Part shown: one piece after another, positions 1 through 22,803 of the stretch
Position numbering within the stretch: position 1 is the first letter of the stretch
How the letters are laid out: each line of letters opens with the position of its first letter
Assembly: GCF_015351245.1 (NCBI RefSeq)
Contig: NZ_JADKSO010000003.1
Coordinates: 248,001-312,000 of the forward strand
DNA: 64,000 bases
Source: Rathayibacter sp. VKM Ac-2879
Lineage (GTDB): Bacteria; Actinomycetota; Actinomycetes; Actinomycetales; Microbacteriaceae
Direction of reading: 5' to 3'
Made by a program: the position numbers and the translations under genes
The notes under the pieces: generated by a model
Told to the model about the DNA's origin: nothing
Database searches by the model: none
What the model saw: only the letters and a program-made list of their open reading frames with translations

Positions 1-2
1 TC

Positions 3-203
3 CCGGCTCGGTTCGCGAGCACACACGATGTCGTGATGAACACCATCGGCGCGGCGATCGGAGCCGGTCTCGGCGCCAGCCTGCGCGCCTGGCTCCTGGG
101 ACGCGAACGCCGGAGGGCTCTGGAGGAGGATCTGGCATACGCACACATCCCGCTCCACGGCGCCTCCGGCGTCCCGATCGATCAGCAGCGCGCTGGCGGC
201 TGA
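3..203 (+). CDS. VanZ-like membrane protein, C-terminal end (partial)
   Basis: The open frame runs in from the left edge and stops at TGA 201-203. The visible 66 residues contain the motif HDVVMNTIGAAIGAGLGA followed by a short basic, hydrophilic tail. A D-x-x-x-N-x-x-G-x-x-x-G segment at the last membrane helix is typical of VanZ-family proteins, small integral membrane proteins linked to teicoplanin resistance or the cell envelope. The gene ends 11 bp before the convergent ugd gene, with no obvious hairpin between them. The family call rests only on this tail, so it is moderate; the start and the rest of the gene lie outside the window. Confidence 0.5.
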   Translation, partial: PARFASTHDVVMNTIGAAIGAGLGASLRAWLLGRERRRALEEDLAYAHIPLHGASGVPIDQQRAGG

Positions 204-213
204 TCGGAGTACA

Positions 214-1518
214 TCAGCGGCCGAGACCGCGGTAGTCCCACCCCGCCTCGCGCCACGCGGCGGGGTCGAGGCAGTTGCGTCCATCCACGATGAAGGCGTT
301 GCCCACCAGCGCGGCCGTCGCGGCGGGGTCGAGGGCGCGGAACTGCTTCCACTCGGTGACGACGACGACCGCGTCGGCACCGCGAAGCGCCTCCTCGACG
401 TCGGCGGTGTACGAGATGTCGGGGTAGCGACGCTGCGCGTTCGCGATCGCCTCCGGGTCGGTGGCACGCACGGTCGCGCCCAGGTCGTGGAAGCGGGCTG
501 CGACGTCGAGCGACGGCGAGTCACGGATGTCGTCCGACTCAGGCTTGAAGGCGAGGCCGAGCACGGCGATGGTCTTGCCGTCGACCGAGCCGCCGAGGCC
601 CTCGGTGACAATGTCGACCACACGCTGACGGCGACGGAGGTTGATCGCGTCGACCTCCTTGAGGAATGCGACCGAGCCGCCCACGCCGAGCTCTTCGGCC
701 CGCGCCGAGAACGCGCGGATGTCCTTGGGGAGGCAACCGCCGCCGAAGCCGATGCCAGCATTCAGGAAGCGGCGACCGATGCGCGCGTCGTATCCGATCG
801 CATCGGCGAGCTGGGTGACGTCGGCTCCCGTGACCTCGGCGATCTCAGCGATCGCGTTGATGAACGAGATCTTGGTGGCGAGGAACGCATTGGCCGACAC
901 CTTGACGAGCTCGGCGGTTGCGTAGTCGGTCACGACGAGCGGGGTGTCGGCGGCGAGGGCGGTCGCGTAGACCTCGTCGAGAGCGGCACGCGCCGCCTCG
1001 CCTGCAGCACCGGCAGGAACGCCGTAGACGAGGCGGTCGGGGCTGATCGTGTCCTTCACCGCGAAGCCCTCACGGAGGAACTCCGGGTTCCAGGCGAGCG
1101 TCGCGCCGGTCGTGGCGACCCGCTCGGCGAGGCGCGCGGCCGTCCCGACCGGCACCGTCGACTTGCCGACGACGAGCGAGCCGGAGTCGAGGTAGGGAAG
1201 CAGTCCCTCCACGGCCGCGTCGACGAAACGCATGTCGGCCGCATTCTCACCCTGCTTCTGGGGGGTGCCGACCGCGACGAAGTGCACGGAGGCTCCCGCC
1301 GCCTCGGCCATGTCGGTCGAGAACCGCAGGCGGCCCGACGCCACACCGGAGGAGAGCAGCTCGGGCAGACCTGGCTCGAAGAAAGGCGCCGTACCGGCCG
1401 ACAGAGCGTCGATCTTCGCCTGGTCCACGTCGATGCCGATCACCTCGTGACCGAGTTCGACCATCGCGGCCGCGTGAACGGCTCCGAGGTAACCGCAACC
1501 AATAACAGAGAGCTTCAC
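214..1518 (-). CDS. ugd: UDP-glucose 6-dehydrogenase
   Basis: This 434-residue protein oxidises UDP-glucose to UDP-glucuronate with two NAD+, supplying a precursor for exopolysaccharide. The N-terminal Rossmann motif is GCGYLGAVHAAAMVELG (residues 8-24) with the acidic IDVD at 29-32. The substrate loop NPEFLREG is at 144-151. The catalytic cysteine is Cys262 in GFGGGCLPKD, followed by the C-terminal UDP-binding half. Length is normal for the UGD/GMD dehydrogenase family. It is the last gene of the minus-strand polysaccharide operon, 136 bp downstream of the phosphatase gene. The start is GTG at 1518 with AGGAGAACCCCT as ribosome-binding site. That site and start are triplicated just upstream (separate entry), which suggests translational control. 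Confidence 0.93.
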   Translation of the reverse strand: MKLSVIGCGYLGAVHAAAMVELGHEVIGIDVDQAKIDALSAGTAPFFEPGLPELLSSGVASGRLRFSTDMAEAAGASVHFVAVGTPQKQGENAADMRFVDAAVEGLLPYLDSGSLVVGKSTVPVGTAARLAERVATTGATLAWNPEFLREGFAVKDTISPDRLVYGVPAGAAGEAARAALDEVYATALAADTPLVVTDYATAELVKVSANAFLATKISFINAIAEIAEVTGADVTQLADAIGYDARIGRRFLNAGIGFGGGCLPKDIRAFSARAEELGVGGSVAFLKEVDAINLRRRQRVVDIVTEGLGGSVDGKTIAVLGLAFKPESDDIRDSPSLDVAARFHDLGATVRATDPEAIANAQRRYPDISYTADVEEALRGADAVVVVTEWKQFRALDPAATAALVGNAFIVDGRNCLDPAAWREAGWDYRGLGR

Positions 1519-1572
1519 AGGGGTTCTCCTAGCTTCACAGGGATTCTCCAGACTTCACAGCGGTTTTCCGAA
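1511..1572 (-). repeat. 20-bp tandem repeat triplicating the ugd ribosome-binding site and start codon
   Basis: On the minus strand two full units follow each other: GTGAAGTCTGGAGAATCCCT (1558 to 1539) and GTGAAGCTAGGAGAACCCCT (1538 to 1519). The true ugd start GTGAAGCTC begins at 1518, and a degenerate third ribosome-binding site (GGAAAACCGCT) lies at 1569-1559. Each GTG therefore has its own Shine-Dalgarno-like sequence. Reading from the upstream GTGs gives two 7-codon ORFs, MKSGESL and MKLGEPL. Each ends in a TGA that overlaps the next GTG as GTGA. The arrangement looks like slipped-strand duplication, and could make translation of ugd coupled and adjustable by copy number. The coupling is inferred. 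Confidence 0.85.
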
Positions 1573-1654
1573 TCAAGGGCGTCGTTGAGTCGCGTCAGGA
1601 AGGGAGGGAGAGGACGGGCGGAGGCGGCGGAGTCGTCGCGAGCACCGCTCGCGC

Positions 1655-2332
1655 CTATCGCCGCGCCAATGCTCTCAGATCTCGCGCCACGTTGCCGACA
1701 GCGGTCGCTATCTGCTCGGCGACGCGGGCGTGCGTGACCTCGCTCCGGCCGATCGGATCGTCGATGTCGTCGCCGGCGGCCTCGACAGGGGCACGGCCAC
1801 GGTGCGTCGCGGCAAGGCGGACGACGGCGCGGAGGCGAGCCGCCGGATCCTCGATGACAGGCAAAGGGACGTCAGCCACCACGAAGGGCAGCACGCGGGC
1901 GAACTCGAGGAGGGTGAAGCCCCGCAGCAGGACCGCAGGGAAGCGGCGGGCCGCGTCGACCAGATGATCGCGCGTCATCGTCAGCATGAGGTCGGCGCTC
2001 GACGCCACGGACTCCGTGAGCCGGGCGCTCGTGTGGTCCACCACCGCGTCGCCTCCGTGCTGCAGCGAGAGACGCGCCGAGATGGGGTCCATCGGATAGC
2101 CGTCGCGAGTCTCCACCCCCGCGCTGTGGAAGGCGAACAGCGGGCCGCCTTGCGGCGACGTCGCATCGTGCAGTGCTGCCCGAAAGAGCTGTTCGGCCAT
2201 CGGAGAACGGCAGACGTTGCCTGTGCACACGGACAGGACCGTGAAGACCGGCGACCCTGAAGAAGTGGGAGGCGCGGCGGGGTTCCATCCCCGACGCGAG
2301 CGGCGCGAGCCATCGTCACCCGGAAAGGTCAT
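1655..2332 (-). CDS. Low-molecular-weight protein tyrosine phosphatase (polysaccharide cluster)
   Basis: A 225-residue cytoplasmic phosphatase, expected to dephosphorylate the tyrosine autokinase encoded just upstream and so control polymer length or export. The P-loop CTGNVCRS spans residues 36-43 (C-x5-R, Cys36 nucleophile, Arg42), and a late EDPAAR segment is a plausible Asp-Pro general-acid loop. It is longer than classical LMW-PTPs (about 150 residues) because of a Ser/Pro/Arg-rich N-terminus and extra C-terminal residues. An ATG at 2332 was chosen because it lies 10 bp after the kinase stop codon; the open frame extends further upstream but only inside the kinase gene. The partner relationship follows from Wzb/Wzc-type systems. 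Confidence 0.85.
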   Translation of the reverse strand: MTFPGDDGSRRSRRGWNPAAPPTSSGSPVFTVLSVCTGNVCRSPMAEQLFRAALHDATSPQGGPLFAFHSAGVETRDGYPMDPISARLSLQHGGDAVVDHTSARLTESVASSADLMLTMTRDHLVDAARRFPAVLLRGFTLLEFARVLPFVVADVPLPVIEDPAARLRAVVRLAATHRGRAPVEAAGDDIDDPIGRSEVTHARVAEQIATAVGNVARDLRALARR

Positions 2333-2342
2333 CGGGACCCGT

Positions 2343-3878
2343 TCACGCCGTGGTGGACGCAGGCGCGGCCGCGGCCTCCGGGCGGGCTCCGGACCGCTCG
2401 GACCCGTAGTAGCTCGTGTAGTAGTAGCCGTATCCTCGGCCGACCTGACCACGCGGAGGCACGCGGTTGAGGATCACGCCCAAGGTGTGCCCGCTGACAC
2501 GCTCGAGGTTCTGGATCGCCTTGCCGAGCTCGTCCGTGGTCGTCTTTCCGGCTGAGATCACTACGAGCGCCCCGTCGGTACGAGCGGTGAGGATCGCACC
2601 GTCGGTGACAGGCAGGAGCGGAGGTGCATCCACGATCACGATGGCCTCGCGGGCGATCTCGTGCAGCAGGATGTCCATTCCGTTGGACCCCAGGAGCTCG
2701 CTCGGGTTCGGTGGGATGGAGCCAGCACCGAGGATCCACAGGTTGCCCGACGGGCCCCAGGGCTGGAGGACGTCTTGCAGCTCGGCCTTGCCAATCAGGA
2801 GGTCGGTGAGGCCGACTCCGGGAACGAGGCCGAACGACTTCGCAACGGTGGGCTTGCGGAGGTCGCCATCGACGACGACGGTGCGCTGTCCGGAGGCGGC
2901 GAGCGTGACGGCGAGGTTGGCGGTCACGGTCGACTTGCCATCGGACGGGAGCGGGCTCGTCACGACGATGATGCGCGGCGGGCTGTCGACGTTCATGAAC
3001 TGCAGATTGGTGCGCAGCTCGCGCAACGACTCCGCGAGGGCGTGCTTGCCGTCGGACTTGACGTAGTCGGTCGTGTCGGCCTCGGGGACAATGCGGTTGG
3101 TGTCACTCAGGCGCTTGTCGATGGGCAGGGTTCCCACCACGGGGAGGTCGAAGAGCCGCTCCACCATCTCGGCGGTGCGGATACGACGGTCGAGGGTATT
3201 GCGCACGAACGCGTAAATCAGGCCCAGCACGAGGCCCATGAGGGCACCGACCGCGAGCACGAGGCGGAGATTGGGGAAAGCGGGAGCGCTCGGCAGTGCT
3301 GCCGCCTGCACGACGGCGAGCTTGATGGAGTCGCCGACTCCCGTGTCCTGGTTGACCTGCTGGACGCGCGTGGCGATGGCCGACACCCAGGCATCGGCGA
3401 GTTTCTTGGCGCCGTCCGGAGTCGACGCGCTCGCCGTCACCTTGAGGACCGGGGCCGCCGTGTCCGGCGTCACCGTGATTGCCGCGATGAGCGACTCGGG
3501 GCTCACATCGAGTCCGAGGTTTTGGATCGCGATCTCGGCCACGGCGCGGGAACTGGCGATCGGCACGTAAGTCGCGAGGCTCGATTTGGCGACCGAATCG
3601 GCGATTTGCCGCGTGTAGATCGCCTGGTCGTCGTTGCTGTTCCCGGCTGTCGAGACCGAGACGATCCCCTGCGAGTCGGCGACATAGCGCGGCTTCTGGG
3701 TCAGCGACCAGCCGAAGGCGAGAATCGTGCCCAGGAGGATAGTCGCGACGATCGCGAGCCAGTGATCGCGGAGAAGCCGGAGGACGTCTCGAAGTTCCAC
3801 AGTGTCAAGTTCCTTCACTGGTTCGGATCGTACGGCGGGCGCCGGAGACGACAAGCTCTGGCATTGTTGCACAGGCAT
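2343..3878 (-). CDS. Polysaccharide co-polymerase with tyrosine autokinase domain (Wzc/CpsCD type)
   Basis: A 511-residue fusion of a Wzz-like chain-length domain and a bacterial tyrosine kinase. The first membrane helix is near residues 40-60 and the second near 205-225, with the extracytoplasmic loop between them. The kinase half has a Walker A-like SPLPSDGKST, a Walker A' VVVDGDLRKP and a Walker B VIVDAPPLLP. Near the C-terminus a tyrosine cluster (YGYYYTSYYG) is the expected autophosphorylation tail. It would regulate the length and export of the polymer whose first sugar is loaded by the transferase of this operon. The start is uncertain: ATG 3878 is given, but GTG 3818 would begin the conserved part directly. 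It lies 24 bp after the HprK/PqqD gene. Confidence 0.9.
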   Translation of the reverse strand: MPVQQCQSLSSPAPAVRSEPVKELDTVELRDVLRLLRDHWLAIVATILLGTILAFGWSLTQKPRYVADSQGIVSVSTAGNSNDDQAIYTRQIADSVAKSSLATYVPIASSRAVAEIAIQNLGLDVSPESLIAAITVTPDTAAPVLKVTASASTPDGAKKLADAWVSAIATRVQQVNQDTGVGDSIKLAVVQAAALPSAPAFPNLRLVLAVGALMGLVLGLIYAFVRNTLDRRIRTAEMVERLFDLPVVGTLPIDKRLSDTNRIVPEADTTDYVKSDGKHALAESLRELRTNLQFMNVDSPPRIIVVTSPLPSDGKSTVTANLAVTLAASGQRTVVVDGDLRKPTVAKSFGLVPGVGLTDLLIGKAELQDVLQPWGPSGNLWILGAGSIPPNPSELLGSNGMDILLHEIAREAIVIVDAPPLLPVTDGAILTARTDGALVVISAGKTTTDELGKAIQNLERVSGHTLGVILNRVPPRGQVGRGYGYYYTSYYGSERSGARPEAAAAPASTTA

Positions 3879-3902
3879 GTTCCCGCGTTGTTTCGCGGCG
3901 CA

Positions 3903-5087
3903 TCATGCGTGCCACCCCTTCGGGGCAGGTGTGGTCGACGTGATTCTCGAGAGGACTCCGAGCTCGTCGAGCTCGTCGAGCGCGTCCCCGACGACCGCGT
4001 CGGCATCCACACCCGCAGGAGGCGCACCGACCTCGGCGAGGAGCGCCTGCGTGAGCTCTGCGCGCGCGATTCCCTCACCCGAGAGCCGCCAGATCGAGGG
4101 ACCGATCCCTGAGAGGCGGACGAGCCGATTCTCGAGGAACAGGAGGATTTCGCCCCCCGGCATGAGCAGGGCGTCGTCAGTCGGAGAGCGGACGATCAGG
4201 CCGTCGGGCACGTCGGCCCGGGCCCCGGTCGGCAGCGGCTCGACCGCCTCCCACAGGGCGGGAGCAGCCTCTTGTGGGGCGGCGAACGCCTTCTCGACCA
4301 GATCGAGGACCGCCTTCGCCTCGGAGTAGACCAGGCGCCGCACGCCGCCGAGCGCGATCAGACGTTCCACCAGATCGGTGATGGGTCGTGGTCGCGCCGA
4401 GAGGTAGGAGGTCTGTGGCACGAGGTCCTCGACGGCGGCGATGGGGTCGACCGGCTCGAAGCGCGGCGTCTCCACTCCTTCACGGCGCTCGAGGAGGATC
4501 ACCCCCGCGAGGACGAGGGGCGCCTCCGGAAGCGGTCTCAACGAGAGCGACGCCGGGGCGAGTTGCGCCTTGGGTGCCGTTCCGGTGAGCGGCTTCACCG
4601 AGAGGGGCTTGGGGTAGGGCAGCACGCGGCCGTCGGGCAGCACGGCCACCGTCTCGTCGGTGACGTAGCCGAAGCGGGTACCGAGGGCCCGCGAGATGGT
4701 GGTCTTGCCGGTGCCGGAGGCGGCGACGAAGGCCAGAACGCGGCCATCGTCGTCGGCGATCCCGCACGCGTGCAGCATCAGGAGTTCGCTGCGCCGCACT
4801 CCGATCGCCTCGACCGTGAGGGTCGAGGTGAGGGTCTCCTCGAGCTGCTGGACCGAGGAGCTGGTGATGCGTGTCCCCTGCGAGACCGGGGTGGGCTGGC
4901 GCTCCCCCACCTCCACGACCACCTCCCGCGAGCCCTCGGTCGGCTCGATGCGACACGACTCCCAGCTGGTCATGATCCGCGCCGCGTCATCCTCGGTGAC
5001 GCCGCTACCGAACACCACACGGAACGGCACCTCGAGCACGGCGACGGACATCGCGAGCAGGGCGACGGGAGCCCCGCTGCCGGTCAA
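3903..5087 (-). CDS. HprK-like P-loop kinase fused to a C-terminal PqqD-like domain
   Basis: About 394 residues. The middle carries an HPr kinase/phosphorylase-like core: LHACGI, then the P-loop AASGTGKTT and, about 20 residues later, GYVTDETVAV, matching the HprK layout of P-loop plus acidic DE motif. The last 100 residues (GLIVRSPTDDALLM, then RLVRLSGIGPSIWRL) resemble PqqD, a small winged-helix peptide-recognition domain. HprK-like and PqqD-like proteins are known as separate neighbours in some polysaccharide clusters (the 'HPr-rel-A' system); here they appear as one chain. The start chosen is TTG 5087: GAGGGGG precedes it and the upstream stop overlaps it as TTGA. ATG 5051 is the alternative. 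The substrate is unknown. Confidence 0.75.
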   Translation of the reverse strand: MTGSGAPVALLAMSVAVLEVPFRVVFGSGVTEDDAARIMTSWESCRIEPTEGSREVVVEVGERQPTPVSQGTRITSSSVQQLEETLTSTLTVEAIGVRRSELLMLHACGIADDDGRVLAFVAASGTGKTTISRALGTRFGYVTDETVAVLPDGRVLPYPKPLSVKPLTGTAPKAQLAPASLSLRPLPEAPLVLAGVILLERREGVETPRFEPVDPIAAVEDLVPQTSYLSARPRPITDLVERLIALGGVRRLVYSEAKAVLDLVEKAFAAPQEAAPALWEAVEPLPTGARADVPDGLIVRSPTDDALLMPGGEILLFLENRLVRLSGIGPSIWRLSGEGIARAELTQALLAEVGAPPAGVDADAVVGDALDELDELGVLSRITSTTPAPKGWHA

Positions 5088-6568
5088 TAGGCCCCCTCGC
5101 GCGCGAGGACGGCGCGCGCGGTCTTGAAGAGGATGACGATGTCTCCCGTCATCGACCAGTTCTCGACGTAGTAGAGGTCGAGTCGGACGGTGTCCTCCCA
5201 CGAGAGGTTGGAGCGCCCGCTGACCTGCCACAGACCGGTGATCCCCGGCTTCATGAGGAAGCGGCGGTGCACGTGCTCCTCGTACTGCTCGACCTCGCGC
5301 GCGAGGGGCGGCCTCGGTCCGATCAGCGACATGTCGCCCCGGAAGACGTTGAGGAACTGGGGCAGCTCGTCCAGGCTGAAGCGGCGCAGCACGGCACCGA
5401 CCCGAGTGACGCGCGGGTCCTTCGCCATCTTGAAGAGGATCGAGTTGCCCTCGGCCCGCTGCTGCGTCGCGAGAGCCTCGAGTCGTGCCTCCGCGTCGAC
5501 CACCATCGAGCGGAACTTGAGCATCTCGAAGGTCGCTCCGTTGAGGCCGATGCGCTCCTGCCGGAACAGGACGGGCCCCGGGCTCGTCGTCTTGACCAGG
5601 ACGGCGACCACGATGAGGACGGGGGCGCTGAGGATGATGAGCATCGTCGAGGCGGCGATGTCGAACAGGCGCTTCGCGAAGCGCTGCCGTCCGTCGAAAC
5701 GCGGCGTCTCGACATGGATGAGCGGAAGACCCGCGACCGGACGCGTGTGAATGCGCGGCCCGCCGATGTCGGTGAGGCTCGGCGCCACGACGAGATGCTC
5801 CCGGCCGGGCTCGAGGGTCCAGCTCAGCTCTCGGATGCGCTGCGGAGCGAGCTCGTCGGAGCTGGTGACGACGACCGTGTCGGCATCGGTGGCGTCCATG
5901 ATGGCGCGCACACCGTCGATGCCGGAGAAGCCGTGGACGGCGAGGCCCACGAGCTCCGGCTCGCCGCGCAACGCCTCCGCACCGCCGACCGAGGTCGAGA
6001 CGGCGCCGACGAGCTTGTAGCCGGCCTCGGAGCCGCGACGCAGCTCTCGCGCCGTGTGCAGCACGCTCGCCTGCGAGCCCAGGAGGACGACGTGGCTCGA
6101 GAAGCGACCCGCGCGACGCTCGCGCGTCAGCCAGGAGCGCCAGAGCAGCCTCCCGGCGCAGATGAGCACGATGCCGGCCGGGAACGCGGTGATGATGTAG
6201 CCGCGTGCGAGGAGGATCTGCAACAGATACGCGATGATCGCGACGATGCCGAAGAGCCAGATGGAGGCGTCGACGATGCGGCGGTACTCGACGTACCCCG
6301 TGCCGACGATGCGGCGGTCACGGGTGTCGAAGACCTGGAGCGCGAGCATCCACGCGATCGACAGCACGACGGACACCCACGTGTAGTTGACCGCGATGTC
6401 GACGGGGTTGTTGAAGCCCACGTCGGAGTTGAGGTCCAGGTCGAACCAGAACAATTGGGTCCCGAAGACGGACACGAGGATCGCGACGACGTCGGTCGCC
6501 AGGAGACGGCGACGGTAGTCCTGCTCCCACGAAGGCCGACGCTTGGGAGCGGATGCCTGCGTGGCCAT
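5084..6568 (-). CDS. Polyprenyl-phosphate sugar-1-phosphate transferase (initiating glycosyltransferase)
   Basis: A 494-residue WbaP/CpsE-type membrane protein that would transfer a sugar-1-phosphate to undecaprenyl phosphate and start the repeat unit. The N-terminal half has several hydrophobic helices and a CoA-binding-like domain. Near residue 300, RLFDIAASTMLIILSAPVLI forms the last membrane helix. The catalytic C-terminal domain follows with PGPVLFRQERIG, FEMLKFRSM, DELPQFLNVFRGDMSLIGPR and KPGITGLWQVSGRS, all signatures of the family. The start is ATG 6568 with GGGGGGATCC before it; an in-frame ATG at 6628 lacks such a site. It is the first gene of the operon, and its promoter should lie in 6569-6692, where I see no convincing -10/-35 pair. 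Confidence 0.93.
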   Translation of the reverse strand: MATQASAPKRRPSWEQDYRRRLLATDVVAILVSVFGTQLFWFDLDLNSDVGFNNPVDIAVNYTWVSVVLSIAWMLALQVFDTRDRRIVGTGYVEYRRIVDASIWLFGIVAIIAYLLQILLARGYIITAFPAGIVLICAGRLLWRSWLTRERRAGRFSSHVVLLGSQASVLHTARELRRGSEAGYKLVGAVSTSVGGAEALRGEPELVGLAVHGFSGIDGVRAIMDATDADTVVVTSSDELAPQRIRELSWTLEPGREHLVVAPSLTDIGGPRIHTRPVAGLPLIHVETPRFDGRQRFAKRLFDIAASTMLIILSAPVLIVVAVLVKTTSPGPVLFRQERIGLNGATFEMLKFRSMVVDAEARLEALATQQRAEGNSILFKMAKDPRVTRVGAVLRRFSLDELPQFLNVFRGDMSLIGPRPPLAREVEQYEEHVHRRFLMKPGITGLWQVSGRSNLSWEDTVRLDLYYVENWSMTGDIVILFKTARAVLAREGAY

Positions 6569-6692
6569 GGATCCCCCCGACCTTTCCTGCTGTTCTGAAA
6601 GGCGTAGTTCCGTTTCCGGTGATGTCACGCCGCAAGGCTACCCACATCCGCGTTTCGCGGGAGTGTCGAAGAGGCGAGGCCTTCTCATGCGA

Positions 6693-7301
6693 CTACCCGC
6701 GGAGGCGTCCGCGGCTCTCCTGGAGGTAGCAGGCACCGCAGAGCGACTCGTACGTGACCGCCGCTCCGTCTATGGCGACCTGGTCGCCGTCGAACACGAA
6801 ACGGCCGTCGACGACGCGACCGTTGAAGATCGCTTTGCGCCCGCACCGGCAGATCGTCTTGAGCTCCTCGAGGCTGTGCGAGATCTCGAGCAGGCGCCTG
6901 CTGCCGGGAAAGGCCTCCGTGCGGAAGTCGGTACGGATGCCGTAGGCGAGCACGGGGACGTTCTCGAGGATCGCGATGCGCAGCAGGTCGTCGACGTGCG
7001 ACTCCGGCAGGAACTGTGCTTCGTCGACGAGCAGAGCACTGACGTCGCGCGCCGACTCGGCGAGGATCCGCGCCCGCGCCGCCGTGAAGACCGCGATCGG
7101 ATCGCCGTCCGGTTCGAACAGGATGTCGACGGGACGTGCCACACCCAGTCGCGAGACGATGAGGTCGTCTCCCTTGGTGTCGACGGCCGGCTTGGCCAAG
7201 AGCACACGGTGCCCGCGCTCCTCGTAGTTGTGCGCAGCCTGGAGCAGCGACGTGCTCTTGCCGCTGTTCATCGCTCCGTAGCGGAAGTACAGCTTGGCCA
7301 T
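6693..7301 (-). CDS. tdk: Thymidine kinase
   Basis: A 202-residue type II thymidine kinase that phosphorylates thymidine with ATP in the salvage pathway. The P-loop GAMNSGKST begins at residue 9, and the magnesium/catalytic motif DEAQF is in the middle. The zinc lasso is formed by the CRCG and CGACY cysteine pairs in the C-terminal third, and length matches the family. The start ATG 7301 has GGAGGAG six bases upstream. It lies between the polysaccharide operon and a LuxR-type regulator, all on the minus strand, with no sign of functional linkage. Confidence 0.95.
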   Translation of the reverse strand: MAKLYFRYGAMNSGKSTSLLQAAHNYEERGHRVLLAKPAVDTKGDDLIVSRLGVARPVDILFEPDGDPIAVFTAARARILAESARDVSALLVDEAQFLPESHVDDLLRIAILENVPVLAYGIRTDFRTEAFPGSRRLLEISHSLEELKTICRCGRKAIFNGRVVDGRFVFDGDQVAIDGAAVTYESLCGACYLQESRGRLRG

Positions 7302-7341
7302 CAGGTCTCCTCCGGAGTCGGCAGGCGGGGGCCGGAGCGGC

Positions 7342-8037
7342 TCACTCGAGGAATCCGTCCTCTTCGGCGCGCCGGATCAACTCGCCCCGCCGACCCGCTG
7401 GTCGGCCGAGGGCGAGGTACTTGCGTCGGATGCGACGCAGATAGGTCTTGGCCGTCTCGAACTGCACGCTCATTCGCTCGGCGACCTCGGGAGTGGAGGC
7501 TCCTGCGGCGTAGAGTCGCAACGCCTCGCGCTCGGAGGGGCTCAGCTTGGGCCGCGGGGGCGGGACGACGGCGAGAGGCGGAGGGCGCCACCCGCCCGGG
7601 TCGACGGGTCGCCCGGGAAGGATGCCGAGCACGGCCTCCGCCACGTCACGCGCGGTGGCGTCGCCGCCGAGGTGCGCTGCCGCCCCTGCCCGCAGCGAAC
7701 GCGCCCGGACCGCATCGTCGTCCGAGGAGAGCACGAGCACCCGCGCACCGGCGGCGCGACATGTGCGGAGTCTCCCCTCGATCGAGAGTGGCTCGTTCAG
7801 TTCGAAGTCCATCACCACGACCTGGGTGGGGAAGGACGGGCTCGTGACGAGCTCGAGCCACGATCCCGCGCTGACGACGACGTCGAGAGCGGGCGCATTG
7901 CGCGAGATCCATTCGACCGTGCGCGTGCGCACGCCCGCGTCGATGCGGAGCATTCCGAGGCGCACGGGACGCGGTGCATCGTCGGGGGCGACCCGGTGGG
8001 AGGAGCCGGGGGAAGGCTCACCGGGGCGGGTGACCAT
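7342..8037 (-). CDS. LuxR-type DNA-binding regulator with pseudo-receiver domain
   Basis: A 231-residue regulator. The N-terminal 130 residues resemble a response-regulator fold (VVVMDFELNEP, VLVLSSDDD, RAGAAAHLGGD), and the aspartate of VVMDFE could be the phosphorylation site. The acidic pocket expected at strand 1 is not evident (LGMLRIDAG), so phosphorylation is doubtful. The C-terminal helix-turn-helix is LSPSEREALRLYAAGASTPEVAERMSVQFETAKTYLRRI (NarL/LuxR type). ATG 8037 was chosen because TAGGA lies eight bases upstream, although the frame is open to 8154. No kinase gene lies beside it. Confidence 0.8.
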   Translation of the reverse strand: MVTRPGEPSPGSSHRVAPDDAPRPVRLGMLRIDAGVRTRTVEWISRNAPALDVVVSAGSWLELVTSPSFPTQVVVMDFELNEPLSIEGRLRTCRAAGARVLVLSSDDDAVRARSLRAGAAAHLGGDATARDVAEAVLGILPGRPVDPGGWRPPPLAVVPPPRPKLSPSEREALRLYAAGASTPEVAERMSVQFETAKTYLRRIRRKYLALGRPAGRRGELIRRAEEDGFLE

Positions 8038-8174
8038 GTCGACGATCCTACGCGGGCGCACGGCCGCCTCGAACCGGAGGCGCTCGCGGCCCGGACGGAA
8101 CGAGCCCAGTCTCGACCGGTCGGCGACGCGTCGGAGCGAGGCGTGTCGGACCATGATTCTCGGGCGGAGTCATC

Positions 8175-9317
8175 TCAGAACAGGGTCGGCTGGCCGACAC
8201 CGGGCAGGGCCGCCGCACGCTCCGGGCCGAGCTCCTCGACGAGGAGACCGTCGCGCTGAAGACCACGGCGCTCGCCTCCGAGGACGCGCAACGTGCCGAG
8301 CGGCTGGTGCGAACCCGCGCCGCCGAGCGCTGACGAGCGCACCGAGCCGGTCGCCGGATCCTCCTCGCCGCGCCGGAGCCGGTGACGACGCATCAGCGGA
8401 CGAATGCGCTCGGACAGCCAGCGACGGTACTCGATCGGCGCGGAGGCGGAACGTCCCGAATACAGGGCGCGATAGCGGTCGACGAGCTCGGGATGCTCGG
8501 CGGCGAGCCATCCGAAGAACCAGTCTTTGACGCCGGGCTTGAGATGTAACGCGGAATACATCACGGTGCTCGCTCCCGCCTCACGGCAGGCGCTCAACGC
8601 CGCGTCGAGGTGGGCCCGGGTGTCGGTGAGGAACGGAAGGATCGGCATGAGGAACACCGAGCACTCGAACCCGGCCTCACGCGCCGCGGTGACCGTCGCG
8701 AGCCGCGCCGCGGCACTCGGCGCCCCCGGCTCGAGGGACCGCTGCAACTCGTCGTCGTAGACGGCGATCGACACTCCGAGGTCGACGGGCACGTGCTCGG
8801 CGGCCTCGGCGAGGAGCGGAAGGTCGCGCCGCAGCAGCGACCCCTTGGTGAGGATCGAAAGCGGGGTGCCCGACGCCGCAAGCGCGGCGATGATGCCCGG
8901 CATGAGCTGGTAGCGCCCCTCGGCACGCTGGTAGGGGTCGGTGTTGGTGCCGAGGGCGACGGGGTGCCGCCCCCAACTGGGGCGGCCCAGCTCTTTTGCC
9001 AGCACGTCGGCCACGTTCACCTTGACCACGATCTGGGAGTCGAAGTCGCGGCCGCCGTCGAACTCGAGGTACTCATGGGTCGGCCGGGCGAAGCAGTAGG
9101 TGCACGCGTGGGTGCATCCGCGCATCGGATTGATGGTCCAGCCGAACGGCATGGACGACGACGAGTGCACCTTGTTCAGTGCGGACTTCGCGAGGATCTC
9201 GTAGAAGGTGATGCCCTCGAACTCGGGGGTGCGCACCGTGCGGACGAGTTCGCTGAGCCGCACGAGCCCGGGCAGCGCCTCCTCGCCCGCTGTGATCGCT
9301 TGACTGCTCCATCTCAT
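8175..9317 (-). CDS. Radical SAM protein of the Rv2578c/SplB-like type
   Basis: A 380-residue protein with the radical SAM iron-sulfur signature CTHACTYC (Cys68, Cys72, Cys75) preceded by NPMRG, the form seen in the Rv2578c family. A SAM-binding segment (LGTNTDPYQRAEGRYQLM) follows near residue 125, and a second-half motif SILTKGSLLRRDLPLL matches the same family. The family is widespread in actinobacteria and distantly related to spore photoproduct lyase; its reaction is not established. It is transcribed alone between mqo and the LuxR-type gene. The start ATG 9317 has no strong ribosome-binding site and could be a few codons off. Confidence 0.85.
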   Translation of the reverse strand: MRWSSQAITAGEEALPGLVRLSELVRTVRTPEFEGITFYEILAKSALNKVHSSSSMPFGWTINPMRGCTHACTYCFARPTHEYLEFDGGRDFDSQIVVKVNVADVLAKELGRPSWGRHPVALGTNTDPYQRAEGRYQLMPGIIAALAASGTPLSILTKGSLLRRDLPLLAEAAEHVPVDLGVSIAVYDDELQRSLEPGAPSAAARLATVTAAREAGFECSVFLMPILPFLTDTRAHLDAALSACREAGASTVMYSALHLKPGVKDWFFGWLAAEHPELVDRYRALYSGRSASAPIEYRRWLSERIRPLMRRHRLRRGEEDPATGSVRSSALGGAGSHQPLGTLRVLGGERRGLQRDGLLVEELGPERAAALPGVGQPTLF

Positions 9318-9461
9318 GAAGAAATGAGAACATACTTTCGATTCCCGGTCAGCCCCCCGGCGCGAGATCTCGAAGATCGCCGGCGTGTCGTCGACGCGCC
9401 CCAGCCGACGGACCTGAGGCGCGAGGCGTCACGCGAGCCTCGCTCCCACGCGCGACCCGGC

Positions 9462-10949
9462 TCAGACGGAAGCGGACAGCGAGAGCGCCTCGGACGTCTC
9501 GTGCACGACACGCTCGGCTATCTCGGGCGAATCGTTGAGCGTCGAGCCGTAGCTCGGCACGAGCGAGCGGATGCGCGGCTCCCACGTCGCCATGCGGTCG
9601 GGGAAGCACTTCCGCACGATGTCGAGCATGATCGGCACCGCCGTGGAGGCACCGGGCGACGCTCCGAGGAGACCCGCGATGCTTCCCTCCGCACCGGTGA
9701 TGACCTCGGTGCCGAACTGCAGCACGCCGCCCTTCTTCTCGTCCTTCTTCATCACCTGCACGCGTTGGCCCGCGGTGATGAGATACCAGTCCTCGGAGCG
9801 AGCGCTGGGGAGGAACTCGCGCAGGGCCTTGAGCTTCTTGGAGCGGCCAGCGAGGACCTCGCCGATCAGGTACTTCATCAGATCGAGGTTGTCGCGCGCC
9901 ACGGCCAGCATCGGGCCGATGTTGTGCGGGCGGATCGACCGCGGCAGGTCGAGCCAGGAGCCGCGCTTGAGGAACTTGGGCGTGAATCCCGCGTACGGCC
10001 CGAAGAGGAGGGACGACTGGCCGTCGACGACGCGGGTGTCGAGGTGCGGCACCGACATCGGAGGCGCACCGACCGCGGCCTTCCCATAGACCTTCGCGTG
10101 GTGCTGCGCCACGACCTCGGGGTTGTCCGTGCGCAGGAACTGGCCAGAGATCGGGAAGCCGCCGAAGCCCTTGATCTCGGGGATGCCCGACTTCTGCAGG
10201 AGGTGCAGCGCTCCGCCGCCGGCCCCGACGAAGACGAAACGGGCCGTGACGCGCTTGGGGGTGCCTCCGACGAGCTGCTTGAGGTCGAGACGCCAGGTGC
10301 CGTCCTTCTGCCGGGTGATGTCGGTCACCTCGTGGCCTGTGTCGAGAGTCCCGCCGTGCGCGACGACGTGGTCGAACAGCTGCCGGGTGAGCGAACCGAA
10401 GTCGACGTCCGTGCCCGCTGGCACCCGCGTCGCCGCGTAGGGCCCGCCGCCAGCAGGGCGTCGCTCCATGAGCAATGGCGCCCACTCGTGGATCATCTTG
10501 ACGCTGTCGGTGAATTCGATGCCGGCGAAGAGCGGCTGGTCTTTCAGCGCCTCGTAGCGCTTGCGCAGGTACTCGACGTTGGCCTCTCCGTGCACGAACG
10601 TCATGTGCGGAGCCGGGTTGATGAAGCTCGACGGCTCTCGGATGTCGCCGGACTCGACGAGGCTCGACCAGAACTGGCGCGAGATCTGGAACTGCTCGTT
10701 GATCTGGATCGCCTTCGCGGGATCGACCGAGCCGTCGGCCGCCTCCGGCATGTAGTTGAGCTCGCAGAGGGCTGAGTGACCGGTGCCGGCATTGTTCCAG
10801 GGATTCGACGATTCCTGCGCGACATCGCCGAGGCGCTCGTAGGCGGCGATCGTCCAATCGGGCTGCAGCTGGGTGAGCAGTGCGCCAAGAGTGGCGCTCA
10901 TGATGCCCCCACCGATGAGGGCGACGTCGACCGGTTCCGAGGAGTTCAC
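9462..10949 (-). CDS. mqo: Malate:quinone oxidoreductase
   Basis: A peripheral membrane flavoenzyme that oxidises malate to oxaloacetate and passes electrons to menaquinone. The FAD-binding motif VALIGGGIMSATLGALL starts near residue 9, followed by ERLGDVAQESSNPWNNAGTG, highly typical of Mqo. Later motifs are FVGAGGGALHLLQKSGIPE and FPISGQFLR, and the C-terminal half includes AGQRVQVMKKD and LLGASPGAST. From GTG 10949 the product is 495 residues, the usual family length. ATG 11012 would add 21 residues that look unrelated. It is monocistronic, with a strong dyad (11043-11069) between its start and the asd stop. Confidence 0.95.
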   Translation of the reverse strand: MNSSEPVDVALIGGGIMSATLGALLTQLQPDWTIAAYERLGDVAQESSNPWNNAGTGHSALCELNYMPEAADGSVDPAKAIQINEQFQISRQFWSSLVESGDIREPSSFINPAPHMTFVHGEANVEYLRKRYEALKDQPLFAGIEFTDSVKMIHEWAPLLMERRPAGGGPYAATRVPAGTDVDFGSLTRQLFDHVVAHGGTLDTGHEVTDITRQKDGTWRLDLKQLVGGTPKRVTARFVFVGAGGGALHLLQKSGIPEIKGFGGFPISGQFLRTDNPEVVAQHHAKVYGKAAVGAPPMSVPHLDTRVVDGQSSLLFGPYAGFTPKFLKRGSWLDLPRSIRPHNIGPMLAVARDNLDLMKYLIGEVLAGRSKKLKALREFLPSARSEDWYLITAGQRVQVMKKDEKKGGVLQFGTEVITGAEGSIAGLLGASPGASTAVPIMLDIVRKCFPDRMATWEPRIRSLVPSYGSTLNDSPEIAERVVHETSEALSLSASV

Positions 10950-11042
10950 GAGAGACGAGTTTACCGTCGCCGTGTGCCGTGCACGCGGGCCAAAGGCCCG
11001 CTCGCCCATCAAATTCGCGGATTTTCCCGCGCGAGCAGGCGG

Positions 11043-11069
11043 GGAGGGGTCGGGAGCGCCGACCCCTCC
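11043..11069. terminator. Hairpin between asd and mqo
   Basis: A perfect 11-bp stem GGAGGGGTCGG / CCGACCCCTCC with a 5-nt loop (GAGCG) lies seven bases beyond the asd stop codon at 11076. It is well placed to end transcription of the lysC-asd unit before mqo on the same strand. There is no U-run after it on either strand, so intrinsic termination is plausible but unproven. Confidence 0.5.
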
Positions 11070-11075
11070 GTGCCG

Positions 11076-12209
<1,134 letters not shown>

Positions 12210-16448: not shown

Positions 16449-17438
16449 GTGACCCCACCCGCTTTCGACGCCATCGTGCTGGCCGGCGGGCGCGGCGAGC
16501 GCCTCGGCGGGGCCGACAAGCCGCTGCTCGAGCATCGCGGATCCACGCTGCTCGCCCACGCGCTCGGGGCGGTCTCCGGCGCTCGACGCCTCGTCGTCGT
16601 GGGTCCGACGACGCTCGCCCGCCACGTCGGCCCGGCACTCCTCGTGCGCGAGGAGCCGACGTTCGGCGGTCCCGTCGCCGGTCTCGCCGCCGCGCTCCCC
16701 CTGCTCGGGGAGTCGCCGGACCCGGACTGGGTCATCGTCATCGCCGCGGACCTCGTCGATCCCGCTCCTGCCGTCGAGCGCCTGCTGTCGGCCGCGCAGG
16801 AGGCGCGACCGGCGATCGCCTCGCTGGTCGCGATCGACGGCGACGGGCATCCGCAGCTACTGCTGGGCGTGCACCGTCGGAGCGCGCTGCTCGCCGCGGC
16901 GGCACGACTGGGCACAGCGGCGCACGGTGCCTCCGTGCGCACTCTGCTCGCCGGGCTCACCACGCACCAGGTCGCCGTGCCCGCGGGCTCGACCGCCGAT
17001 GTGGACGACCTGGCCGACGCCCTCCGACACGGAATCGACGTGCGGACGTCCACGACTCAGACTGGGGTGGTGGACGAGACGACGAGCGCCCCCTCCGACC
17101 GCGAGCCCGGCGAGGACCTGGCGCCCCGGGACGACCACGGACCCCGCACGGGCACCGAGCCCCTCACAGACACCGAGCCCCTCACAGACACCGAGGCGAT
17201 CCTCGCCGCGTGGTGGGCGGAGCTCTCCGCCGCGCTCGGACTCGGCGCCGTACCGACCGACAAGGACACCCTGCTCGCCCTCGCCGGGGAGGCGGCGCGC
17301 GGGGTCGTCCGGCCAGCCGCCCCCCTGACGACCTTCCTGGCCGGCTACGCCGCCGGCCTCCGCGGAGGCGACCGTGCCGCGCTCGAGCAGGCGCTGGCCG
17401 CCGCCTCCGAGGCGATCCAGGATCGCTCCCGCGGCTGA
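16449..17438 (+). CDS. mobA: Molybdenum cofactor guanylyltransferase (MobA-like) fused to a DUF6457-type domain
   Basis: A 329-residue two-part protein. The first 195 residues are a MobA nucleotidyltransferase: IVLAGGRGERLGGADKPLLEHRG binds GTP, and FGGPVAGLAAAL and VIVIAADLVDP are the later family motifs. It would attach GMP to molybdopterin. After a hydrophilic linker (196-255), the C-terminal 75 residues (AILAAWWAELSAALGLG onward) look like the small helical DUF6457 domain that also occurs alone beside molybdenum genes. The linker contains an exact 18-bp tandem duplication (17153-17188). GTG 16449 is the start used, with a weak CGGAG just upstream. It is divergent from dnaX and 99 bp before moeA. 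Confidence 0.85.
   Translation: MTPPAFDAIVLAGGRGERLGGADKPLLEHRGSTLLAHALGAVSGARRLVVVGPTTLARHVGPALLVREEPTFGGPVAGLAAALPLLGESPDPDWVIVIAADLVDPAPAVERLLSAAQEARPAIASLVAIDGDGHPQLLLGVHRRSALLAAAARLGTAAHGASVRTLLAGLTTHQVAVPAGSTADVDDLADALRHGIDVRTSTTQTGVVDETTSAPSDREPGEDLAPRDDHGPRTGTEPLTDTEPLTDTEAILAAWWAELSAALGLGAVPTDKDTLLALAGEAARGVVRPAAPLTTFLAGYAAGLRGGDRAALEQALAAASEAIQDRSRG
17153..17195 (+). repeat. 18-bp tandem duplication inside the mobA linker
   Basis: Two exact copies of CACCGAGCCCCTCACAGA lie head to tail (17153-17170 and 17171-17188), followed by a partial third (CACCGAG). They encode TEPLTD twice. The unit is a multiple of three, so the frame is kept and the linker is simply lengthened; it looks like a recent slippage event in a disordered segment. 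Confidence 0.9.
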
Positions 17439-20253: not shown

Positions 20254-22398
20254 TCAGCGCAAGACGGGGATGGCGGAGGTGGGCGGGACGATGGCCTGGG
20301 TCGCCGCTTGGATCGCGGTGATGGCGACGGTGTTGACGATGTCCTGCACCAGGGCACCACGCGAGAGGTCGTTGACCGGCTTGCGCAGCCCCTGCAGCAC
20401 GGGCCCGATCGCCACGGCTCCCGCCGAGCGCTGCACCGCCTTGTAAGTGTTGTTGCCCGTGTTGAGGTCGGGGAAGATGAAGACGGTCGCGCGGCCCGCC
20501 ACTTGCGAACCCGGCATCTTGGAGGCGGCGACCGCCGCATCCGCTGCTGCGTCGTATTGGATCGGTCCCTCGACGAGCAGGTCGGGGCGGCGCTCACGGA
20601 CCAGCGCCGTCGCCGCGCGGACCTTCTCGACGTCGGCACCCGCCCCGCTCTCGCCCGTGGAGTAGGAGAGCATCGCGATTCGCGGCTCGATGCCGAACTG
20701 CTGCGCGGTTTCGGCGGAGGAGATCGCGATGTCGGCGAGCTGTGCCTCGGTGGGGTCGGGGTTGACCGCGCAATCTCCGTAGACCAGGACGCGATCGGCG
20801 AGGGCCATGAGGAAGACGCTCGACACGACGGAGACGCCGGGGCTGGTCTTGATGATCTCGAAACCGGGGCGGATGGTGTGCGCGGTCGTGTGGGCGGCTC
20901 CCGAGACCATGCCGTCGGCCAGCCCGAGCTGCACCATGAGCGTGCCGAAGTAGGAGACGTCGGTGACGGTGTCGTAGGCGTGGTCGTACGTGATGCCCTT
21001 GTGCGCCCGGATGCGCGCGTACTCGTCGGCGAACCGGGCGCGCAGCTCGGGATCGAGCGTGCTGAGCACGCGCGCCGCGTCGAGGTCGAGCCCGAGTGCG
21101 GCGGCGCGGGCGCGGATCTCAGCCTCCTCTCCCAGGAGGGTGAGGCGGGCGATGCCACGCTTGAGGACCGTGGCGGCGGCGCGGAGGATGCGGTCGTCGC
21201 CTCCCTCGGGCAGGACGATGTGACGATCGGCCATGCGAGCGCGCTCGATCAGCCCGTACTCGAACATGAGCGGCGTGACGACCTCGGAGCGGCCGACGTC
21301 GAGGAGCGTGAGCAGCTCCACCGCGCTCACCGCCTCCTGGAACAGCGCGAGCGAGGTGTCGCGCTTGCGCGGCGAGTCGGCGGCGAGGCGGCCCCGCGCG
21401 GCGGTGACGCGGACAGCGGTGTCGTAGGTGCCGAGCTCGGTCATGACGATCGGGAGGCGGGTGTCGATGCCCTCGATCAGGCGGACGATCGGTTCGGGCA
21501 GCTCGAAGCCGCCGTTGAGGATGATGCCCGTCACGGTAGGGAACGTGCCTGAGGCGTACGCCATGATGACCGCGAGGACCACCTCGGGGCGGTCGCCGGG
21601 CACGATCACGACGCCGCCCTCGGTCAGGCGCGGGAGCACGTTGACCATCGACATGCCCGCGACGACCACGCCGAGCGCCTCGCGACCGAGGAGCTCGGGA
21701 TCGCCGGCGACCACGACTCCGTCGACCGCCTCGACCAGGCGCGACAGGCTGGGAGCAACGAGCAGGGGGTCTTCGCGGATCGCCCAGACGGGGACCTCGA
21801 CGGGGACCGACTCGCGGATGGCGGCGACCGCCTCGACCGCGGTGGCGGGATCGGCGCGGTTCGCGATGACTCCGATGAGTCGCGCGTGCGCGGTGCGCAG
21901 CTCGACGGCGGCGAGCTCGGTGATCTGCCGCATCTCTTCGGGCGTGCGCGCGGGCGCCTGGCCGAGCTGCTCGCGCCGGGAGGGGTCACGGCCGGTCAGC
22001 ACGAGGAGCACGGGCGCGCCGAGGTTGGCGGCGATGCGGGCGTTGTAACCGAGCTCGGTCGGGCTGCCGACGTCGGTGTAGTCGGAGCCGAGGATGACGA
22101 CGGCATCGCACTGGGCCTCGACGCCCTTGTAGCGCTCGACGATCCGCGAGAGCGCAGCCTCGCCGTCGGCGTGCACGTCTTCGTAGGTGACGCCGATGCA
22201 GTCCTCGTAGGCGAGACCCGAGTCGGCGTGTCCGAGCAGCATCTCGAGAACGTAGTCGGGCTCGGACGTGGAGCGGGCGATCGGCCGGAAGACACCGACT
22301 CGCTGCACCGTACTGCTGAGCATGTCGAGGACGCCGAGGGCGACCGTGGACTTGCCGGAATGACCTTCGGCGGACGAGATGTAGATGCTCTGAACCAT
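20254..22398 (-). CDS. pta: Phosphate acetyltransferase (long, multidomain form)
   Basis: A 714-residue Pta that converts acetyl-CoA and phosphate to acetyl phosphate. The N-terminal BioD-like domain has the P-loop SAEGHSGKSTVALGVLDML. A DRTGG domain is in the middle (VVVAGMSMVNVLP to VIVPGDRPEVVLAVIMAY). The catalytic C-terminal part, from about residue 385, has MADRHIVLPEGGDDRIL, MVSGAAHTTAHTIRPG and MLSYSTGESGAG. Length and domain order match the long enterobacterial/actinobacterial type. It is the first gene of the pta-ackA unit. Confidence 0.96.
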   Translation of the reverse strand: MVQSIYISSAEGHSGKSTVALGVLDMLSSTVQRVGVFRPIARSTSEPDYVLEMLLGHADSGLAYEDCIGVTYEDVHADGEAALSRIVERYKGVEAQCDAVVILGSDYTDVGSPTELGYNARIAANLGAPVLLVLTGRDPSRREQLGQAPARTPEEMRQITELAAVELRTAHARLIGVIANRADPATAVEAVAAIRESVPVEVPVWAIREDPLLVAPSLSRLVEAVDGVVVAGDPELLGREALGVVVAGMSMVNVLPRLTEGGVVIVPGDRPEVVLAVIMAYASGTFPTVTGIILNGGFELPEPIVRLIEGIDTRLPIVMTELGTYDTAVRVTAARGRLAADSPRKRDTSLALFQEAVSAVELLTLLDVGRSEVVTPLMFEYGLIERARMADRHIVLPEGGDDRILRAAATVLKRGIARLTLLGEEAEIRARAAALGLDLDAARVLSTLDPELRARFADEYARIRAHKGITYDHAYDTVTDVSYFGTLMVQLGLADGMVSGAAHTTAHTIRPGFEIIKTSPGVSVVSSVFLMALADRVLVYGDCAVNPDPTEAQLADIAISSAETAQQFGIEPRIAMLSYSTGESGAGADVEKVRAATALVRERRPDLLVEGPIQYDAAADAAVAASKMPGSQVAGRATVFIFPDLNTGNNTYKAVQRSAGAVAIGPVLQGLRKPVNDLSRGALVQDIVNTVAITAIQAATQAIVPPTSAIPVLR

Positions 22399-22464
22399 CG
22401 GAATCAGCCTACCGAGAGGGTCCCGGCTCGAGCCTGGGCAGGTGCCCCGGATGGACGTTCGTCC

Positions 22465-22508
22465 AGCGAACTAGGCCTGTGGAGACAGCGAACAAGGCCT
22501 GTAGAGAC
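22465..22508. repeat. Imperfect 22-bp tandem repeat near the 3' end of the SRP RNA
   Basis: AGCGAACTAGGCCTGTGGAG-AC (22465-22486) is followed directly by AGCGAACAAGGCCTGTAGAG-AC (22487-22508), differing at two positions. Both hold the palindrome AGGCCT. The pair starts six bases beyond the predicted 3' end of the SRP RNA on the minus strand. It could affect 3' processing or simply be a duplication; no function is assigned. Confidence 0.8.
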
Positions 22509-22715: not shown

Positions 22716-22800
22716 GGAGGATTCGCCTAGTGGCCTATGGCGCACGCTTGGAAAGCGTGTTGGGTGAAAGCCCTCGGGGGTTCGAATCCCCCATCCTCCG
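22716..22800 (+). tRNA. tRNA-Ser (anticodon GGA)
   Basis: The 85-nt sequence folds as a class II tRNA. The acceptor stem pairs GGAGGAT (22716-22722) with ATCCTCC (22793-22799), with G as discriminator base. The anticodon stem is CACGC/GCGTG around the loop TTGGAAA, giving anticodon GGA for UCC/UCU codons. A long variable arm (TTGGGTGAAAGCCCTC region) and the T arm GGGGGTTCGAATCCCCC follow. No CCA is encoded. A 9-bp hairpin follows four bases after the end. Confidence 0.95.
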
Positions 22801-22803
22801 CGA

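What the first reader, a model, noticed from the sequence alone, without database searches (positions are those of the whole stretch)
1511..1572. Triplicated ribosome-binding site/start cassette in front of ugd, with two coupled 7-codon leader ORFs
Two exact-length 20-bp units, each with a Shine-Dalgarno-like GGAGAA and a GTG-AAG start, precede the true ugd start, and a third decayed ribosome-binding site lies before them. Because 20 is not a multiple of three, each upstream GTG opens a 7-codon ORF (MKSGESL, MKLGEPL) whose TGA overlaps the next GTG as GTGA. Ribosomes could enter at three points and be passed on by termination-reinitiation. Copy-number change by slippage would retune Ugd, and so capsule or EPS precursor supply. 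I know of no described example of this kind in front of ugd.
Basis: partly seen in the sequence, partly recalled or inferred. Interest (0 to 1): 0.72.

Follow-up and report, generated by a model that had tools for sequence, protein, structure and literature searches.

The report
Duplicated start signal before ugd
In some Rathayibacter-like bacteria the short stretch that tells ribosomes where to start the sugar-enzyme gene ugd has been copied two or three times in a row, making tiny overlapping leader genes that probably hand ribosomes on to the real gene.

Summary
On the minus strand, three 20-bp units (1570-1511) lead into the ugd start. Each has a GTGAAG start. The Shine-Dalgarno is intact in the inner two and weak in the outer one. 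The two upstream GTGs open 7-codon ORFs whose TGA overlaps the next GTG (GTGA).

The window is Rathayibacter-like. All 15 genus genomes searched have the orthologue: 12 have one unit, and 3 (one clade) have two, with the same 20-bp period and the same coupled leader layout (MKLGEAL). The trio's extra unit is unchanged at 20 of 20 sites, while 444 of 981 fourfold sites and 27 of 60 adjacent intergenic columns vary. In 398 family genomes the array pattern matched only this trio and one unrelated place.

The outer 'decayed' unit lies in the ancestral position; the inner ones are duplicates. The likeliest working model is termination-reinitiation coupling, a natural counterpart of the synthetic 'bicistronic design'. 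This is inferred, not shown. Copy number differs between species, but fast slippage is not supported: the units have diverged, and one array is fixed in three species; same-species strains were not compared. I rate it a new variant of a known kind.

The parts
214..1518 (-). ugd, UDP-glucose 6-dehydrogenase family CDS, GTG start 1518-1516
   Evidence: ORF; Pfam PF03721/PF00984/PF03720; NCBIfam TIGR03026 nucleotide sugar dehydrogenase above cutoff, the UDP-glucose-specific equivalog models below theirs; best PDB matches are UDP-glucose dehydrogenases
1511..1530 (-). unit 3: ugd's own SD (GGAG 1529-1526), spacer, GTG AAG CT
   Evidence: duplex -7.3
1531..1550 (-). unit 2: SD GGAG 1549-1546, start GTG 1538-1536
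   Evidence: duplex -6.4
1551..1570 (-). unit 1 (outermost, ancestral position): weak SD GGAA 1569-1566, start GTG 1558-1556
   Evidence: duplex -3.5; context GATTCGG shared with single-unit relatives
1535..1558 (-). leader ORF A, MKSGESL*, TGA overlaps the GTG of ORF B
   Evidence: read; pattern match
1515..1538 (-). leader ORF B, MKLGEPL*, TGA overlaps the ugd GTG; the SD for ugd lies inside its Gly-Glu codons
   Evidence: read; pattern match
1519..1654 (-). gap between the upstream LMW-PTP-like gene (ends at 1655, minus) and ugd; it holds units 1 and 2 and the SD of unit 3

Best explanation
The array is a lineage-specific tandem duplication of ugd's own translation-start cassette (SD, spacer, GTGAAGCT), 20 bp per unit. 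Because 20 leaves a remainder of 2 when divided by 3 and the start reads GTGA, each upstream start becomes a 7-codon ORF that ends in the next start at -4 nt spacing and holds the next SD. Most likely ribosomes load on an upstream unit (mainly unit 2 in the window, unit 1 in the two-unit clade), translate the mini-ORF, terminate at TGA and reinitiate at the overlapping GTG, which keeps the ugd start open. That is a natural counterpart of the synthetic bicistronic design. Shown: the anatomy, the duplication, copy number 1/2/3 across species, and invariance of the extra unit in three species. Inferred: that the mini-ORFs are translated, that coupling occurs, and that it raises or steadies Ugd output.
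For: Exact anatomy. Single-unit homologous start in 12 of 15 genus genomes, two-unit in 3 of 15. The trio's leader MKLGEAL keeps SD, a start codon, frame and GTGA overlap although its DNA differs from the window's. In the trio, unit 1 is invariant at 20 of 20 sites, against 444 of 981 fourfold sites and 27 of 60 adjacent intergenic columns variable (chance about 6e-6 at the fourfold rate, 6.6e-4 at the whole-gap rate; chosen after seeing the data). Among 1,021 gene calls, duplicated SD-plus-start at the first possible start was seen only at ugd, in the window and the trio. Window plus trio as one clade is rejected for four concatenated genes (AU p 0.0136), so the arrays probably arose twice with the same coupled outcome. 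In a synthetic C. glutamicum leaderless design, mutating the fore-cistron start lowered expression, and the gain was lost when the SD inside it was mutated (PMC10367133, passages seen).
Against: No expression data. The outermost window unit has lost SD strength, and the trio's leader starts with TTG, a weaker start in general (recalled). Folding predicts the SD of window unit 2, my main entry point, to be mostly paired (unpaired 0.04-0.13), and the trio's unit 1 SD is only 0.04-0.31 unpaired. Identical sequence in three species cannot separate mini-ORF translation from another role of the same bases. 6.7% of 20-column stretches in the coding alignment are also invariant, and so are the 27 intergenic columns next to the upstream gene. 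Ugd alone does not reject window plus trio as one clade (p 0.284), so one origin or exchange is possible. PMC10367133 also reports that some bicistronic cassettes with a 5' UTR lowered expression (passage seen), so a leader need not help.
Confidence: 0.5

Rival explanations
1. Neutral leftover: slippage copied the start cassette, the innermost copy serves ugd, and the upstream copies do nothing measurable.
For: The window's outer unit has a weakened SD and 5 of 20 changes against unit 3. Short tandem duplications are common events (general knowledge). One in three random periods would give the GTGA coupling by chance (arithmetic).
Against: The extra unit is invariant in three species (20 of 20) beside sequence that varies at neutral-like rates. 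A second case at the same gene in the genus, against none at the first possible start of any other gene call in the scan (1,021 calls).
Confidence: 0.25
2. Open spacer or standby site: the extra copies matter because they put weakly folded, SD-bearing sequence ahead of the start, not because the mini-ORFs are translated.
For: Predicted openness of the ugd start codon is 0.67-0.90 in the four multi-unit sequences and 0.01-0.52 in the twelve single-unit ones with 40 nt upstream. With 100 nt it is 0.52-0.90 against 0.02-0.69, which overlap.
Against: SD openness shows no clear difference between the groups (not tested statistically). There are at most two independent events. The frame and stop overlap are kept in both lineages, which a spacer does not need.
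Confidence: 0.15
3. Copy-number switch: fast gain and loss of units tunes Ugd between strains or cells.
For: Copy number 1, 2 or 3 among 16 sequences of the genus.
Against: The units have diverged from one another and the two-unit array is identical in three species, so turnover looks slow. No same-species strains were compared.
Confidence: 0.05
4. Direct-repeat binding site for a regulator, 20 bp apart (about two helix turns).
For: Regular 20-bp spacing of TGTGAAG in the window.
Against: The units are copies of the translation start itself, which is in place in all 12 single-unit relatives. No Rfam match in 1-12000. No inverted repeat found in 1300-1900.
Confidence: 0.05

Closest known systems
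Synthetic bicistronic design (BCD; Mutalik et al. 2013 as cited in PMC10367133, passages seen)
   Same: Short leader ORF carrying the SD of the gene at its end, so that ribosomes recruited by the leader favour initiation at the gene.
   Different: BCD is engineered. Here the leader is 7 codons, arose by copying the gene's own start, and is doubled in the window.
Translationally coupled uORFs with NTGA (-4 nt) overlap (review PMC12548453, passages seen; Huber et al. 2019, PMC6728339, abstract and outline seen)
   Same: TGA of the upstream ORF shares two bases with the NTG of the next; a short ORF may serve only to deliver ribosomes.
   Different: Two such ORFs in series made from one 20-bp unit; coupling not measured here.
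Mycobacterial interspersed repetitive units (MIRUs; as described in PMC12548453, passage seen)
   Same: Repetitive unit at a start codon whose ORF couples to the gene with -4 nt spacing, in an actinobacterium.
   Different: MIRUs are described as mobile elements that insert at start codons. This unit is the gene's own start cassette; in the window it was seen only at ugd, and not at all in 800 kb of G016 outside the ugd region.

Membership tests
Translationally coupled uORF (NTGA type) | Co-directional short ORF directly upstream of the gene | tested here: met
   ORFs A and B read; homologous leader in 3 of 15 genus genomes
Translationally coupled uORF (NTGA type) | Stop of the upstream ORF overlaps the next start (-4 nt) | tested here: met
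   GTGA at 1538-1535 and 1518-1515; GTGA in the trio
Translationally coupled uORF (NTGA type) | Translation of the upstream ORF promotes translation of the gene | not testable with these tools
   needs reporters or ribosome profiling
Bicistronic design architecture | SD of the gene lies inside the leader ORF, which has its own SD | tested here: met
   GGAG of units 2 and 3 lies inside ORFs A and B; the leaders' own SDs score -3.5 (A, weak) and -6.4 (B) kcal/mol
MIRU | Unit found at many genes (mobile by the review; dispersal recalled) | tested here: not met
   Single unit with up to 2 substitutions: only the three copies at ugd in the window, 0 in 800 kb of G016. Tandem pattern: 4 of 398 family genomes, 3 at ugd, 1 unrelated
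Phase-variable or VNTR-controlled gene | Copy number differs between strains of one species | not tested
   one genome per species was used; only between-species difference seen

The most novel reading that the evidence does not exclude
Start-cassette duplication is a repeatable evolutionary route to a coupled leader: in Rathayibacter it happened at ugd in two lineages, was kept by selection in one, and set the translation of the UDP-glucuronate-forming step by the number of ribosome-loading units in series.
Probability: 0.2. Interest if true: 0.62.

Novelty: new variant of a known kind. Interest (0 to 1): 0.42.

Why it matters
It offers a simple path by which a gene can gain a coupled leader ORF: copy its own start with a period that leaves remainder 2 when divided by 3, starting from an NTGA start. 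Natural one-, two- and three-unit versions of the same gene start exist in related species, so the effect of leader number on translation can be measured with natural leaders.

Tried and rejected
Promoter and terminator consensus scan of 1450-1800 found nothing. Rfam over 1-12000 found nothing. A hairpin between the upstream gene and ugd, suggested by eye, was not supported: mean z -0.41 over 16 sequences. A block-identity scan for duplicated starts could not separate the two-unit clade from background (14 of 20 is within noise), so local scores were used. There too the trio's score of 10 overlaps repeats inside other genes; it stands apart only when SD and start codon are required in both copies. 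The gene caller was poor where antisense ORFs are long and was replaced. In one search none of 80 ugd loci exceeded 13 of 22 for a repeated start block, against 18 for the window and 14-15 for the trio. Attenuator peptide: considered and set aside, as the leaders show no run of one codon type.

Papers: nine searches. In the titles and abstract starts listed I saw no tandem start-cassette array before ugd. The library holds open-licence papers only, and several lists were capped.

Rows dropped: of five genes looked at for the tree, the HprK-like one was left out; two outgroup genomes (G018, G005) lack the sugar transferase hit and enter with gaps there. The second, 30% identical G001 match (L096) was not counted as ugd. 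Loci L081-L106 and L162-L165 were not in the background scan.

Full report
What is there. The window's ugd gene (214-1518, minus) belongs to the UDP-glucose dehydrogenase family. The general nucleotide sugar dehydrogenase model is above its cut-off, the UDP-glucose-specific equivalog models are below theirs, and the best solved relatives are UDP-glucose dehydrogenases. It lies downstream of a low-molecular-weight tyrosine phosphatase-like gene, a polysaccharide tyrosine autokinase-like gene and a sugar transferase, i.e. an exopolysaccharide locus. Its start is preceded by a 3 x 20 bp array (1511-1570). On the minus strand the units read CGGAAAACCGCTGTGAAGTC, TGGAGAATCCCTGTGAAGCT and AGGAGAACCCCTGTGAAGCT. 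The two upstream GTGs open MKSGESL* and MKLGEPL*, each ending in GTGA.

Chance. In 60 dinucleotide shuffles of the whole 64 kb, one array reached TRF score 79. The array ranks third among 67 real rows. In 1,021 gene calls with 1,234 SD-bearing candidate starts, from the window, 80 ugd loci, 15 genus loci and 800 kb of one relative, the window array had the highest start-spanning repeat score, 21.5; the best elsewhere was 14. With an SD-like word and a start codon required in both copies, six starts remained. Four are ugd (window 21.5; trio 10 each). Two are weaker (8.5 and 8.0) repeats with periods divisible by three, at internal candidate starts of other genes. The sets overlap in part (the first seven ugd loci and seven of the 15 genus loci come from the same genomes), and the gene caller is a simple codon-score one.

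Relatives. Through these, 15 genomes of the genus were searched and all 15 have the orthologue. Twelve have a single unit, typically GATTCGGAGAANCCCTGTGAAGCTTTCTGT. Three (G013, G014, G016) have GGAGAATCCCCTTGAAGCTT followed by GGAGAAGCACTGTGAAGCTT, again 20 bp apart, with leader MKLGEAL* ending in GTGA. A family-wide pattern search, on a sample of 398 genomes, hit 4: these three at ugd, and G261, where the match is not at a ugd start. An earlier search was mis-spaced and is not used.

History. A tree of four concatenated genes puts the window with R. iranicus, R. tanaceti and G012 (99/98), all single-unit, and the trio apart (100/99). Holding the window with the trio is rejected for the concatenation (AU p 0.0136) and for the genes other than ugd (p 0.0101), but not for ugd alone (p 0.284). 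So two origins are favoured; one origin with losses, or exchange at ugd, is not excluded. The window's outer unit keeps the GATTCGG context of the single-unit species, so it occupies the ancestral position, and the two inner units are the additions.

Selection. In the trio the extra unit (20 of 20) and the whole start region (47 columns, 15 of them ugd codons) are identical. By contrast 444 of 981 fourfold sites and 27 of the 60 intergenic columns just upstream differ, gaps counted. The chance of 20 unchanged sites is about 6e-6 at the fourfold rate and 6.6e-4 at the rate of the whole 88-column gap, in which the first 27 columns are also unchanged. 6.7% of 20-column stretches in the coding alignment are invariant as well. 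The comparison was chosen after seeing the data and rests on three species.

Mechanism. The SD of each downstream start lies inside the preceding mini-ORF, and stop and start overlap at -4 nt, which the review gives as the commonest spacing and among the efficient ones (PMC12548453, passages seen). Anti-SD duplex energies are -3.5, -6.4 and -7.3 kcal/mol from outer to inner unit in the window and -6.6 and -6.4 in the trio, so the window's outer unit is probably a minor entry point. Against this, folding predicts the SD of window unit 2 to be mostly paired (unpaired 0.04-0.13), while the weak outer SD is more open (0.50-0.69). Units 20 nt apart are closer than a ribosome footprint (about 30 nt, recalled), so they would be used in turn, not at once. 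A start-codon openness difference keeps the open-spacer rival alive. Translation of the mini-ORFs and any effect on Ugd remain inferred.

Verdict. A real, derived and partly conserved feature whose working principle is known; the repeated start-cassette form before ugd is a new variant.

Noticed in passing
L019:254 (+), Marisediminicola senii, a gene other than ugd: A 17-bp start-spanning repeat with GTGAGGG in both copies; the upstream GTG would read MRAGTA* and end in the GTGA of the called start. The upstream copy has no SD-like word by my rule. A possible second case of the same layout.
   Followed up: partly
22464-22507: Two head-to-tail 22-bp copies (CAGCGAACNAGGCCTGTRGAGA), found nowhere else in the window, about 200 bp before a tRNA-Ser gene (22716-22801). 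They lie outside the 714-aa ORF 20254-22398 but inside an unverified 293-aa plus-strand ORF.
   Followed up: partly
17142-17195: 18-bp tandem repeat, highest TRF score in the window (87); one of several open frames reads PLTDTE repeats, so it may be a coding repeat.
   Followed up: partly
1589-1596 and relatives: A GTCGC-4 nt-GCGAC element lies upstream of the ugd SD in 13 of 15 genus genomes by my reading of the alignment (not in G018 and G005); the window keeps only the GACGCGAC half.
   Followed up: no
G013/G014/G016 (L107-L109), first 27 nt after the phosphatase gene: 27 intergenic columns invariant in three species although 27 of the 60 columns next to the array vary; a hairpin test over 16 sequences gave no support.
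   Followed up: partly
3903-5132: Gene in the polysaccharide locus with weak HprK-related kinase A and PqqD-like matches, both below the curated cut-offs.
   Followed up: no
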